Shown piece by piece: positions 6,388 through 11,408 of a stretch of DNA of 64,000 nucleotides; position 1 is the first letter of the stretch, and every line of letters begins with the position of its first letter. The stretch covers positions 124,001 to 188,000 of the forward strand of contig JADJLX010000003.1 in assembly GCA_016709865.1 (NCBI GenBank). The letters run 5' to 3'. The notes beneath the pieces were generated by a model. The model saw only the letters and a program-made list of their open reading frames with translations. It did no database searches and had not been told where the DNA came from. Both the position numbers and the translations under genes were made by a program. This stretch comes from Bacteroidales bacterium. GTDB lineage: Bacteria > Bacteroidota > Bacteroidia > Bacteroidales > VadinHA17.

Positions 6388-7416
6388 TTATTTTTTACTT
6401 CTTATCATTTTCTCCCAGTCCCAGGCTGTCTTCATTGCCTCGTCAAGTGAGCTTAGTGTTTTCCATCCCAGCTCTTTATTTGCATATGAAGGATCAGCCC
6501 AGATTTTTTCAATGTCGCCTGCTCTTCTTCCAACTATTCTGTATTTAAGTTTGATTCCGGAGACCCTTTCGAACGACCTGATTGCCTCAAGGACAGAAAC
6601 TCCTGTTCCGGTTCCGAGGTTAAAGACCTCATAATTTGCCTTGTTTTTAACTTCAACAAGTCTTTTTACAGCAACAACATGAGCTTTTGCGAGATCAACA
6701 ACATGAAGATAGTCTCTGACACATGAGCCGTCGGGAGTGTTATAATCATCACCAAATACCCTTAGTTCGTCCCTTAACCCATAGGCAGTCTGTGTAATAT
6801 ACGGAACAAGGTTTTCAGGTACTCCTCTTGGAAGTTCCCCGATAAGTGCTGACGGATGTGCGCCTATCGGATTGAAATACCTTAATGAAATAGCTTTTAT
6901 ATTCTTATCAGAAACTGTTGTATCTCTTATAATTGTCTCGCCTATCTGCTTTGTATTTCCGTAAGGTGAAGTGGCAGGCTGCAAAGGAGCAGTCTCGGTT
7001 ACCGGAAGTTTCTCAGGCTGTCCGTAAACAGTACAGGAAGATGAAAAAACAAAATCGGGAATGCCATTTTGTTTCATTGCATCTAAAAGATTGACAAGGG
7101 AAAGCAGGTTGTTTCTGTAGTATTCAAGAGGTTTGTTAACAGATTCACCTACAGCCTTATAGGCAGCGAAATGAATGACTGCTGCAATATCCTTGTTTTT
7201 TGAGAAGAAAGCATCGACTTTGTCTTTCTCACAAAGGTCAAAGACTTCAAGAAGCGGTTTAACCCCGGTAATTTTTTGAATACGGTCAACAACTTCAGCT
7301 TCAGAATTATAGAGATTGTCAACAATCACTACATCGAACCCTTCATTTATCAGCTCAACAGCTGTGTGTGATCCAATGTATCCGGTACCGCCGGTAACAA
7401 GTATTTTCTTTTTCAT
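6388..7416 (-). CDS. galE: UDP-glucose 4-epimerase
   Basis: This NAD-dependent epimerase interconverts UDP-glucose and UDP-galactose, possibly also the N-acetyl forms. It has the TGGTGYIGSH dinucleotide-binding motif at 8-17, the catalytic Ser in FSSSCTVYG (about 125-127), and Tyr152/Lys156 in PYGNTK. The SLRYFNPIGAHPS and GDGSCVRDY-like segments are standard for GalE. Its 342 residues are full length. The start codon overlaps or abuts the stop of wbpA, and rfbB follows after five bases, indicating one transcript. Confidence 0.95.
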   Translation of the reverse strand: MKKKILVTGGTGYIGSHTAVELINEGFDVVIVDNLYNSEAEVVDRIQKITGVKPLLEVFDLCEKDKVDAFFSKNKDIAAVIHFAAYKAVGESVNKPLEYYRNNLLSLVNLLDAMKQNGIPDFVFSSSCTVYGQPEKLPVTETAPLQPATSPYGNTKQIGETIIRDTTVSDKNIKAISLRYFNPIGAHPSALIGELPRGVPENLVPYITQTAYGLRDELRVFGDDYNTPDGSCVRDYLHVVDLAKAHVVAVKRLVEVKNKANYEVFNLGTGTGVSVLEAIRSFERVSGIKLKYRIVGRRAGDIEKIWADPSYANKELGWKTLSSLDEAMKTAWDWEKMIRSKK

Positions 7417-8705
7417 TAAAGGCTCCAGTATGGATGATTTTTAATTTTTCCTCGAAGTACCCCTTTAACATCAACTATAATTCCGTCTTTATTAAGAAGA
7501 GGCGCAAAATAAGATTCGTCAAGGCTAAGGTATTCTTTGTGGCTTACAGCAAGTATAACAGCATCATATTTTCCCGAAGGCTGAGCTTTTAATTCAACTC
7601 CATATTCTTCCTTTACTTCATGGTTACTTGCTCCGGGGTCGATTACGTCAACTTTCAAGCCGAAATCGGCAAGTTCTTTAATTACATCAACTACTTTGGA
7701 ATTACGGATGTCAGTAACATCTTCCTTGAATGTAATTCCCATAATCAGTACCCGGCCATCTTTAAGGTTTTTACCTGAAGCGATAATTTTTTTAACAGTC
7801 TGCTTACCGATGTATCCGCCCATACTGTCGTTAATAAATCTTCCGGAGTCTATCATCTGGGGATGATAACCAAGTGCTTTGGCTTTATATGAAAGATAAT
7901 ACGGATCAACACCTATGCAATGTCCTCCGACAAGGCCAGGAAAGAACTTAAGGAAGTTCCATTTAGTACCGGCAGCTTCAAGCACTTCAAATGTATTAAT
8001 GCCCATTCGGTTGAAGATGATAGAAAGCTCATTCATAAAGGCAATATTGATATCGCGCTGGGTATTCTCAATAATCTTGGCAGCTTCGGCAACTTTAATT
8101 GAGCTCGCTCTGTGTACACCAGCCTTGATTATCATTTCATAGATTTTGGCAATATTCTCTGCAGATTCCGCATCGCAGCCGCTTGTTACCTTCACAATCT
8201 TGGTAAGTGTATGGTTTGTATCACCCGGATTAATTCGCTCTGGTGAAAACCCTACTTTAAAGTCTGTGCCACATTTTAACTCGGAGAATCTTTCAAGAAC
8301 AGGAATGCAGTCTTCCTCTGTACAACCGGGGTAGACAGTTGATTCGTAGACAACATAGTCTCCTTTTTTCAGAATTCTGCCAACTGTCTCTGAAGCCCGA
8401 ATTACAGGAGTCAGATCGGGAAGGTTGTATCTGTCTGTCGGAGTAGGAACTGCAATAATATGAAAAGAAGCCTCTTTCAGATCGGCCGGATTGCTCGTAA
8501 AAAGAATATCGGTGCCTTTAAAAGCTTCCGATGTTAATTCATTACTTGGGTCTATCCCTTTTTTCATCAGTTCAACCCTGTCGGGTTTAATATCAAACCC
8601 GATTACTTTTATTTGTTTTGCAAACTCAAGTGCAATTGGAAGGCCAACATAACCAAGGCCTATGACTGATAGTTTTGTGTTCTTTTTAAGAAGCTTATTA
8701 TACAT
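7416..8705 (-). CDS. wbpA: UDP-N-acetylglucosamine 6-dehydrogenase, WbpA/TviB type
   Basis: This NAD-dependent enzyme oxidises C6 of UDP-GlcNAc to UDP-GlcNAcA. The ATG at 8705 (MYNKLLKKNTKLSVIGLGYVG) is preferred over an upstream start at 8741, which would overlap wbpB. It then has 429 residues and lies one base after the wbpB stop. The Rossmann motif GLGYVGLP is near residue 17. The thiolate Cys263 sits in GGHCIGVDPYY, and the C-terminal domain carries GITFKEDVTDIRNSKVVD. From sequence alone UDP-ManNAc or UDP-glucose dehydrogenase activity is possible. The wbpB, wbpD and wbpE neighbours make the UDP-GlcNAc reading the best one. Confidence 0.92.
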   Translation of the reverse strand: MYNKLLKKNTKLSVIGLGYVGLPIALEFAKQIKVIGFDIKPDRVELMKKGIDPSNELTSEAFKGTDILFTSNPADLKEASFHIIAVPTPTDRYNLPDLTPVIRASETVGRILKKGDYVVYESTVYPGCTEEDCIPVLERFSELKCGTDFKVGFSPERINPGDTNHTLTKIVKVTSGCDAESAENIAKIYEMIIKAGVHRASSIKVAEAAKIIENTQRDINIAFMNELSIIFNRMGINTFEVLEAAGTKWNFLKFFPGLVGGHCIGVDPYYLSYKAKALGYHPQMIDSGRFINDSMGGYIGKQTVKKIIASGKNLKDGRVLIMGITFKEDVTDIRNSKVVDVIKELADFGLKVDVIDPGASNHEVKEEYGVELKAQPSGKYDAVILAVSHKEYLSLDESYFAPLLNKDGIIVDVKGVLRGKIKNHPYWSL

Positions 8706-8706
8706 T

Positions 8707-10272: not shown

Positions 10273-10280
10273 ATTTACTT

Positions 10281-11408
10281 CTAATTAAAGAATTCCAAAA
10301 CTTTTAGTATAATATAATCAAGTTGTTCCTGCTCCATATCGGGATGCATTGGCAAAGACAGCACTTCCCTGCAAAGAGCAGTTGTAACAGGGAAATCTGT
10401 TTCTTTATAGCCCAGGTGCCTGTAGGCTTCCTGTAAATGCAGTGGTCCGGGATAATATACCATTGAGGGTACATTATTAGATTCAAGATGTTTTTTCAGA
10501 TCATCTCTTCTTCCTCCGTCTACTTTAATTGTGTACTGATGAAATATGTGAGATGAGTATGCTGCTCTTTCAGGAATAGTAATCTGATGGCACCCTGTAA
10601 AAGCTTCATCATAATGTGCTGCAACAACCCTTCTCGCAGCATTGAATTCATTAAGATATTTAAGTTTTATTCTCAGTATTGCTGCCTGAATAGTGTCGAG
10701 CCTTGAGTTTACGCCTATATCATCATAGTGATAACGCACTTTCATCCCATGGTTGGCAATGCTTCTCAGTTTTTTTGCAAAAGCATCATCATTTGTAAAA
10801 AGTGCTCCACCGTCACCATAACACCCGAGATTTTTGGACGGGAAGAAAGAAGTTGTTCCTATATGACCAATGGTTCCGGCTTTTTTAATTGTTCCGTTTC
10901 TGAATATATAGTCAGATCCTGTCGCCTGCGCTGCATCTTCTATTATAAAGAGATTGTGCTTTTGTGCTAGCTCCATAAGGCTCTCCATATCAGCACACTG
11001 GCCAAACAGATGTACCGGAACAATAGCTTTTGTTTTAGGGGTTATAGCTTTTTTTACTGCTTCGACAGAGATATTGAATGTACCCGGATCGGGCTCAACT
11101 ATAACCAGTTTCAGACCCAGCAGAGCCACAACCTCAACAGTTGCGATGAAAGTAAAATTTGTTGTTATAACCTCATCCCCTGGTTTAAGTCCGAGAACCA
11201 TCATGGCAAGATATAATGCATCTGTCCCGTTAGCACATGAAACCACATGCTTTACACCCATATATTCCTGCAATTCTTCCTCAAAAAGCTTAACATCAGG
11301 ACCTTTAATAAAAGCAGTTGATTCAAGTACTGATTTTATTGCCATATCAACTTCAGTACCGATTTTTTCATACTGAGCCTTCAGATCCACCATCTGGATT
11401 TCTCTCAT
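10281..11408 (-). CDS. wbpE: UDP-2-acetamido-3-keto-glucuronate aminotransferase, WbpE type
   Basis: This is a PLP-dependent DegT/DnrJ/EryC1/StrS aminotransferase that installs the C3 amine on the UDP-3-keto sugar using glutamate. The PLP Lys is K192 in FFPSKNLGCYGDGGA, and the ring-nitrogen Asp is D158 in IIEDAAQA. SCANGTDAL binds phosphate. It has 375 residues. AGGAG directly precedes the ATG at 11408; a second ATG five codons in (MVDLKAQY) fits the family start equally well. It is the first gene of the six-gene operon. In P. gingivalis the homologue is PorR, needed for anionic LPS and surface retention of secreted proteases. Confidence 0.92.
   Translation of the reverse strand: MREIQMVDLKAQYEKIGTEVDMAIKSVLESTAFIKGPDVKLFEEELQEYMGVKHVVSCANGTDALYLAMMVLGLKPGDEVITTNFTFIATVEVVALLGLKLVIVEPDPGTFNISVEAVKKAITPKTKAIVPVHLFGQCADMESLMELAQKHNLFIIEDAAQATGSDYIFRNGTIKKAGTIGHIGTTSFFPSKNLGCYGDGGALFTNDDAFAKKLRSIANHGMKVRYHYDDIGVNSRLDTIQAAILRIKLKYLNEFNAARRVVAAHYDEAFTGCHQITIPERAAYSSHIFHQYTIKVDGGRRDDLKKHLESNNVPSMVYYPGPLHLQEAYRHLGYKETDFPVTTALCREVLSLPMHPDMEQEQLDYIILKVLEFFN

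What the first reader, a model, noticed from the sequence alone, without database searches (positions are those of the whole stretch)
7416..11408. Complete WbpABDE sugar pathway close to T9SS genes: likely cargo-linking sugar
Four genes in order (wbpE, wbpD, wbpB, wbpA) encode every step from UDP-GlcNAc to UDP-2,3-diacetamido-glucuronate, with catalytic residues in place (K192 of WbpE, C263 of WbpA). In P. gingivalis, work on the Wbp/Vim pathway showed this type of sugar links T9SS cargo C-termini to anionic LPS. porX, porW and gldH are only 6-16 kb away. The inference is that this operon supplies the T9SS linker and not an ordinary O-antigen: no glycosyltransferase, flippase or polymerase gene is present.
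Basis: partly seen in the sequence, partly recalled or inferred. Interest (0 to 1): 0.7.

Follow-up and report, generated by a model that had tools for sequence, protein, structure and literature searches.

The report
Sugar operon for secreted-protein anchors
A bacterium of the Bacteroidales group carries a six-gene operon that makes an unusual sugar, and evidence from its relatives suggests this sugar is used to fasten secreted proteins to the cell surface; the pathway is known from gum-disease bacteria, so this is a new member of it.

Summary
In detail: wbpE, wbpD, wbpB and wbpA lie in that order on the minus strand, with the named catalytic residues. The operon is longer than reported: galE and rmlB follow. 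In related loci wbpE, wbpD, galE and rmlB stay together (74/76, 77/79, 66/71, 58/64) beside metG and a HU-SPOR gene. porX is near in only 24 of 45, so proximity to T9SS genes is weak evidence.

No whole genome is held for the window, so its own PorU, VimE and VimA could not be sought. In 32 relatives: PorU over cut-off in 30, CTD domains in 32, a VimE-family deacetylase in 27. Beside it, in 19 of 20 fetched loci, is a protein of unassigned family whose modest-confidence model resembles FemX and aminoacyl-tRNA-dependent transferases, as expected of VimA. Across 247 genomes of the order, WbpB goes with VimE where PorU is found (139/6/39/37) but not where it is not (2/9/2/13).

Best reading: the operon makes the precursor of a P. 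gingivalis-type cargo-linking sugar. Against it: 76 of 221 PorU-positive genomes lack WbpB, in a class-wide draw WbpB does not track VimE, and some relatives lack wbpA.

The parts
10281..11408 (-). wbpE: PLP-dependent 3-aminotransferase, K192 present
   Evidence: Pfam DegT_DnrJ_EryC1 399.5 bits; WbpE 3nyu E 3.6e-93; K192
9694..10272 (-). wbpD: hexapeptide 3-N-acetyltransferase
   Evidence: Pfam Hexapep; PDB 3mqg E 1.2e-72 over residues 7-188
8707..9669 (-). wbpB: UDP-GlcNAcA 3-dehydrogenase
   Evidence: PDB 3oa2 WbpB E 5.4e-111; Pfam GFO_IDH_MocA
7416..8741 (-). wbpA: UDP-GlcNAc 6-dehydrogenase; catalytic Cys 275 of the GTG ORF (263 from the ATG at codon 13)
   Evidence: TIGR03026 over cut-off, TviB model 489 bits below its cut-off of 592; Cys position
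6388..7416 (-). galE: UDP-glucose 4-epimerase, same block, overlaps wbpA by one base
   Evidence: TIGR01179 409 bits, cut-off 262; downstream of wbpB in 66 of 71 testable loci
5327..6382 (-). rmlB: dTDP-glucose 4,6-dehydratase, last gene of the block
   Evidence: TIGR01181 450 bits, cut-off 365; 58 of 64 testable loci
11544..12563 (+). divergent neighbour with HU-CCDC81-like and SPOR domains; conserved border of the locus, not part of the pathway
   Evidence: Pfam PF18174, PF18175, PF05036; 61 of 69 testable loci
17341..18894 (-). porX: T9SS response regulator (neighbourhood only)
   Evidence: NF052313 779 bits, cut-off 300
18891..21575 (-). porW/sprE: T9SS lipoprotein (neighbourhood only)
   Evidence: NF052312 681 bits, cut-off 250
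24258..24740 (-). gldH lipoprotein (neighbourhood only)
   Evidence: TIGR03511 124 bits, cut-off 78.7

Best explanation
The operon supplies the sugar precursor for T9SS cargo anchoring. WbpA, WbpB, WbpE and WbpD convert UDP-GlcNAc to UDP-2,3-diacetamido-2,3-dideoxy-glucuronate (each step inferred from homology). Elsewhere in the genome a VimE-family deacetylase would free the C2 amine, and the FemX-like protein encoded next to it, acting as VimA, would add an amino acid (both found in relatives; substrates inferred). The amino group of that residue would be the nucleophile that the sortase PorU joins to the cargo C-terminus when it removes the CTD (mechanism described for P. gingivalis; inferred here). 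GalE and RmlB may feed the hexose and deoxyhexose next to the linking sugar (inference only).
For: All four Wbp enzymes present, K192 and the WbpA Cys in place. The block sits at a position kept across loci of 70-91% WbpB identity, among housekeeping genes. In 32 genomes picked from the 80 loci: PorU over cut-off 30/32, CTD domains 32/32, 5-127 per genome, VimE family 27/32. 18 of 18 scanned members match the NCBIfam VimE model; the one score seen is below its cut-off. The next gene is conserved in 19 of 20 fetched loci; its model's best PDB matches are Sbb17/Sba18, called aminoacyl-tRNA-dependent peptide synthases (Foldseek E 1.3e-9 to 4.4e-9), FemX and FemA. Order draw of 247 genomes: among 221 with PorU, WbpB x VimE is 139/6/39/37 (Fisher P 6e-15); among 26 without, 2/9/2/13 (P 1). 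VimE x PorU 178/4/43/22. In the class draw the 11 WbpB genomes all have PorU.
Against: No genome is held for the window, so PorU, VimE and VimA are shown in relatives only. 76 of 221 PorU-positive genomes of the order lack WbpB, and WbpB x PorU itself is weak (P 0.03). In the class draw WbpB occurs in 11 of 178 and leans away from VimE, if anything (7 of 11 versus 142 of 167, P 0.08). WbpB occurs in 11 genomes of the order without PorU. The VimE match is far below the equivalog cut-off (175 of 440 bits). Eight of eight tested genomes whose locus lacks wbpA have no relative of it at E <= 1e-40, so the uronic acid step is not universal. Fisher tests ignore shared ancestry; the answers show no completeness values. 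The fold model has mean pLDDT 62.8 and matches many plain acetyltransferases too. TIGR04183 also rings in 2 of 14 control genomes, over cut-off in 1.
Confidence: 0.68

Rival explanations
1. The operon makes a sugar of LPS core or O-antigen (or another constant surface glycan) with no special link to T9SS cargo, as in P. aeruginosa and B. pertussis.
For: Wbp enzymes serve LPS in P. aeruginosa and B. pertussis (PMC4031482, passages). galE and rmlB are general LPS sugar genes (recalled). WbpB occurs in 11 genomes of the order without PorU, 9 of them with neither VimE nor a strong hit of its partner. In MAG fen_983 a second WbpB (L065) lies in a polysaccharide-type cluster, and L050's WbpB lies beside a flippase-type gene.
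Against: At the conserved locus the flanks are metG, the HU-SPOR gene and, in many, glmS and a BamH-like gene. WbpB goes with VimE where PorU is present. In fen_983 the polysaccharide-type copy is separate from the conserved one (L004).
Confidence: 0.2
2. The sugar serves both (overlaps with the best explanation): an LPS end or branch that is also the cargo acceptor, as proposed for P. gingivalis, where the linking sugar is part of a pentasaccharide on O-polysaccharide. The split between 'linker' and 'O-antigen' is then a false choice.
For: P. gingivalis cargo is tied through SAGA-Hex-dHex-Hex with branches to O-polysaccharide (PMC13086638, passages). galE and rmlB travel with the wbp genes, which would fit hexose and deoxyhexose neighbours.
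Against: No glycan data for this lineage; galE and rmlB have other uses.
Confidence: 0.4
3. Proximity to porX, porW and gldH reflects a functional T9SS gene cluster.
For: They lie 6-13 kb away in the window.
Against: porX is within 9.3 kb of wbpB in 24 of 45 testable loci, while wbpE, wbpD, galE and rmlB are kept in 74/76, 77/79, 66/71 and 58/64; metG, a peptidase S66 gene, an alanine dehydrogenase-like gene and tsaE lie between.
Confidence: 0.08

Closest known systems
Wbp/Vim linking-sugar pathway of Porphyromonas gingivalis (PMC7468200)
   Same: WbpA, WbpB, WbpE, WbpD all present; relatives carry a VimE-family deacetylase, PorU and CTD proteins
   Different: wbp genes form one block with galE and rmlB, whereas in P. 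gingivalis they are located separately (PMC4031482, passages); the VimE partner found here lies after vimE and has no assigned family; WbpS and VimF not sought
Wbp/Vim pathway of Tannerella forsythia (2-N-glycyl, 3-N-acetylmannuronic acid; PMC7468200)
   Same: same Wbp core
   Different: no C2-epimerase (WbpI-type) gene in this block; whether one exists elsewhere was not tested
WbpA/B/E/D/I pathway of Pseudomonas aeruginosa and the wlb genes of Bordetella
   Same: WbpB and WbpE match the P. aeruginosa-named structures and WbpD an LPS acetyltransferase structure
   Different: no O-antigen genes recognised around the block here; no WbpI in the block
Prevotella intermedia cargo linker (N-alanyl deoxyhexose; PMC11969387)
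   Same: T9SS C-terminal glycosylation of cargo with PorU
   Different: P. intermedia lacks WbpB, WbpD, VimA and VimE, so a different sugar

Membership tests
Wbp pathway (UDP-GlcNAc to UDP-GlcNAc(3NAc)A) | WbpA, WbpB, WbpE and WbpD homologues, WbpE Lys and WbpA Cys in place | tested here: met
   no equivalog cut-off met for WbpB, WbpD, WbpE
Wbp/Vim linking-sugar pathway | VimE deacetylase in the same genome | tested here: inconclusive
   window genome not held; in relatives 27 of 32 carry the PF23019 family, 18 of 18 scanned members match NF053580, the one score seen 175 of 440 bits
Wbp/Vim linking-sugar pathway | VimA aminoacyl transferase | tested here: inconclusive
   adjacent protein in 19 of 20 fetched loci, FemX/FemA-like model, 6 of 19 members match PF13480 and 2 of 19 TIGR03019 weakly; not compared with P. 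gingivalis VimA itself
Wbp/Vim linking-sugar pathway | WbpS amidotransferase (P. gingivalis uronamide form; not essential for conjugation) and VimF | not tested
T9SS with sortase-dependent anchoring | PorU sortase and CTD cargo in the genome | tested here: inconclusive
   relatives only: PorU over cut-off 30/32, TIGR04183 32/32
T9SS with sortase-dependent anchoring | linking sugar found on the cargo C-terminus | not testable with these tools
   needs mass spectrometry
O-antigen biosynthesis cluster | Wzx, Wzy and glycosyltransferases beside the sugar genes | tested here: not met
   none recognised from 1 to 25.9 kb of the window apart from one small unscanned ORF; conserved loci border on the HU-SPOR gene in 61/69 and metG in 46/56

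The most novel reading that the evidence does not exclude
The VimE family (Pfam DUF7033) and the unnamed FemX-like protein beside it are the general core of T9SS cargo conjugation in Bacteroidia: one deacetylates, the other aminoacylates an activated sugar (perhaps from aminoacyl-tRNA), giving PorU its amine. The sugar backbone is exchangeable. Wbp supplies it in this lineage, other pathways elsewhere, and wbpA-less relatives would use a non-uronic 2,3-diamino sugar.
Probability: 0.35. Interest if true: 0.75.

Novelty: new member of a known kind. Interest (0 to 1): 0.48.

Why it matters
In the papers I saw, linking sugars of T9SS cargo are described for three oral species (PMC7468200, PMC11969387). 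If the reading holds, many uncultured Bacteroidales would use the P. gingivalis-type sugar, and the set WbpB, DUF7033 and its neighbour would predict which linker a genome makes. It would also give a function to DUF7033 and to a neighbouring family without a confident Pfam or NCBIfam assignment, both testable in laboratory strains.

Tried and rejected
Search of the window's own assembly: not held. VimA by TIGR03019: weak hits in 13 of 32 genomes, none over cut-off and none in G001, the closest WbpB locus used; set aside once the VimE neighbour was found. Literature search with 'VimE' as a word start returned vimentin papers; repeated with whole words. DUF7033 is named in 0 papers of the library; 'aminoacyl-tRNA' with 'type IX secretion' and 'linking sugar' in 0; this library holds open-licence PMC papers only. 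A search for wbpB with T9SS and synteny was seen as a listing only. Residues separating WbpB of loci with and without wbpA: none at the thresholds used (16 against 60 loci), so no sign of a changed WbpB substrate. The wbpA search used E <= 1e-40, so a divergent nucleotide-sugar dehydrogenase could supply the step. PDB sequence search with the VimE-like profile: no match at E <= 1; with the transferase profile only RsbU at E 0.08-0.43, taken as chance. Nine weak hits (E 1e-17 to 1e-31) of the transferase profile were dropped in the 'strong' count after they were seen; both counts are given. Two further loci outside the usual position, L073 and L078, were looked at with three neighbours each: RNase Y, an epimerase and a UDP-sugar dehydrogenase; an M16 peptidase, a HlyD-type and a TsaD-type protein. 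No flippase among those six; L047 and L066 were not examined.
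Full report
What is there. The window carries a six-gene block on the minus strand: wbpE (10281-11408), wbpD (9694-10272), wbpB (8707-9669), wbpA (7416-8741), galE (6388-7416) and rmlB (5327-6382), with gaps or overlaps of at most 35 bases. The finding named the first four. Identities rest on PDB sequence matches (WbpB 3oa2, WbpE 3nyu, WbpD 3mqg) and on NCBIfam and Pfam. For WbpE three chains of other names score higher than 3nyu. WbpA is over the cut-off of the general nucleotide-sugar dehydrogenase model; the more specific TviB model is below its cut-off. 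K192 of WbpE is right; the WbpA cysteine is 263 only if counted from the ATG at codon 13. PorX, PorW/SprE and GldH are over their cut-offs.

Where it sits. Counting only loci with enough flank, wbpD is beside wbpB in 77 of 79, wbpE in 74 of 76, galE in 66 of 71, rmlB in 58 of 64, the HU-SPOR gene in 61 of 69, metG in 46 of 56, wbpA in 55 of 73, the BamH-like gene in 38 of 52, glmS in 32 of 52 and DUF4954 in 29 of 57. porX is within 9.3 kb in 24 of 45. The block is thus a fixed chromosomal feature, and closeness to T9SS genes belongs to part of the lineage. Two loci, L050 and L065, have wbpB without the usual wbpD and wbpE, in polysaccharide-type clusters: a flippase-type gene and an epimerase in L050, epimerases, a UDP-sugar dehydrogenase, a FemAB-type gene and a WbmS-like deacetylase gene in L065. 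L065 comes from the same MAG, fen_983, as L004, which has the conserved locus.

Is it tied to T9SS? No genome is held for the window, so I used relatives. I picked 32 of the 80 loci as genome handles, mostly those with long flanks. PorU (NF033707) is over cut-off in 30 of 32; in 14 control genomes it is over cut-off in none. CTD domains (TIGR04183) occur in 32 of 32, 5 to 127 per genome; of the 14 controls, 2 ring and 1 is over cut-off. Pfam DUF7033 occurs in 27 of 32 and in none of the 14 controls. The member in G001 matches the NCBIfam model for VimE at E 1.4e-51, 175 bits against a cut-off of 440, and 18 of 18 members scanned (of 20 fetched) match that model. So it is VimE-like, not a certified equivalog.

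Co-distribution. The same draw of 247 genomes of the order came back in four searches: WbpB (E <= 1e-60) in 156, PorU (E <= 1e-100) in 221, DUF7033 (E <= 1e-8) in 182, the transferase profile (E <= 1e-15) in 178. One of the 247 appears in no list and is counted as negative for all. WbpB x VimE is 141/15/41/50, VimE x PorU 178/4/43/22, WbpB x PorU only 145/11/76/15 (P 0.03). Transferase x VimE is 170/8/12/57, or 165/4/17/61 without nine weak hits. Split by PorU, WbpB x VimE is 139/6/39/37 in 221 PorU-positive genomes and 2/9/2/13 in the other 26; with VimE and the strong transferase hit together it is 129/16/34/42 and 1/10/1/14. So WbpB is coupled to VimE only where the sortase is found. Cut-offs were my choice. 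I asked for completeness of 90 or more, but the answers show no completeness values. The tests ignore shared ancestry, and only WbpB stands for the Wbp pathway.

Results against the reading. 76 PorU-positive genomes of the order lack WbpB; 37 of these lack all three genes and 34 have VimE and the strong transferase hit without WbpB. In a class draw of 178 genomes WbpB is in 11, VimE in 149 and PorU in 168. VimE x PorU there is 146/3/22/7 (P 1.3e-4), but WbpB is not positively associated with VimE (7/4 versus 142/25, P 0.08 in the other direction) (tables counted by hand, tested). Wbp is therefore at most one source of linker sugar. P. intermedia already shows a different linker without WbpB, WbpD, VimA or VimE (PMC11969387, passages). 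Finally, of 12 genomes tested, the 8 whose locus lacks wbpA have no relative of it at E <= 1e-40, though 5 of the 8 carry the VimE family. What makes the uronic acid there, if anything, is unexplained.

Verdict. The operon is best read as a new member of the known Wbp/Vim linking-sugar pathway, arranged as one block with galE and rmlB. The linker reading is the best supported but rests on relatives. The choice between linker and LPS sugar may be false, because in P. gingivalis the linking sugar is part of a pentasaccharide on O-polysaccharide (PMC13086638, passages). The broader lead is the DUF7033-transferase pair: DUF7033 follows T9SS well beyond the Wbp genes, while the transferase itself was not tested at class level.

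Noticed in passing
window 5327-7416: rmlB and galE continue the wbp operon and are conserved with it (58 of 64 and 66 of 71 testable loci).
   Followed up: yes
L015, L019, L023, L026, L028-L037, L040, L041: 16 wbp loci without wbpA; in 8 of 8 such genomes tested no wbpA relative at E <= 1e-40 was found.
   Followed up: partly
L173:8909-11115 and equivalents in 19 of 20 fetched loci: DUF7033 (VimE-like) and a family-less FemX-like gene form a conserved pair; DUF7033 is in 149 of 178 genomes of the class draw, far wider than WbpB (11 of 178).
   Followed up: partly
L065 (same MAG as L004) and L050: A separate WbpB in polysaccharide-type clusters; L065 also has a FemAB-type gene and a WbmS-like deacetylase gene.
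   Followed up: partly
window 36018-41579: SusC/SusD-type pair followed by a 3-keto-disaccharide hydrolase family protein.
   Followed up: no
window 31021-32220: C1-like cysteine peptidase family protein.
   Followed up: no
window 32355-35672: Large FG-GAP repeat protein with an ASPIC/UnbV domain; no NCBIfam match, T9SS tail included, at E <= 1e-5.
   Followed up: no
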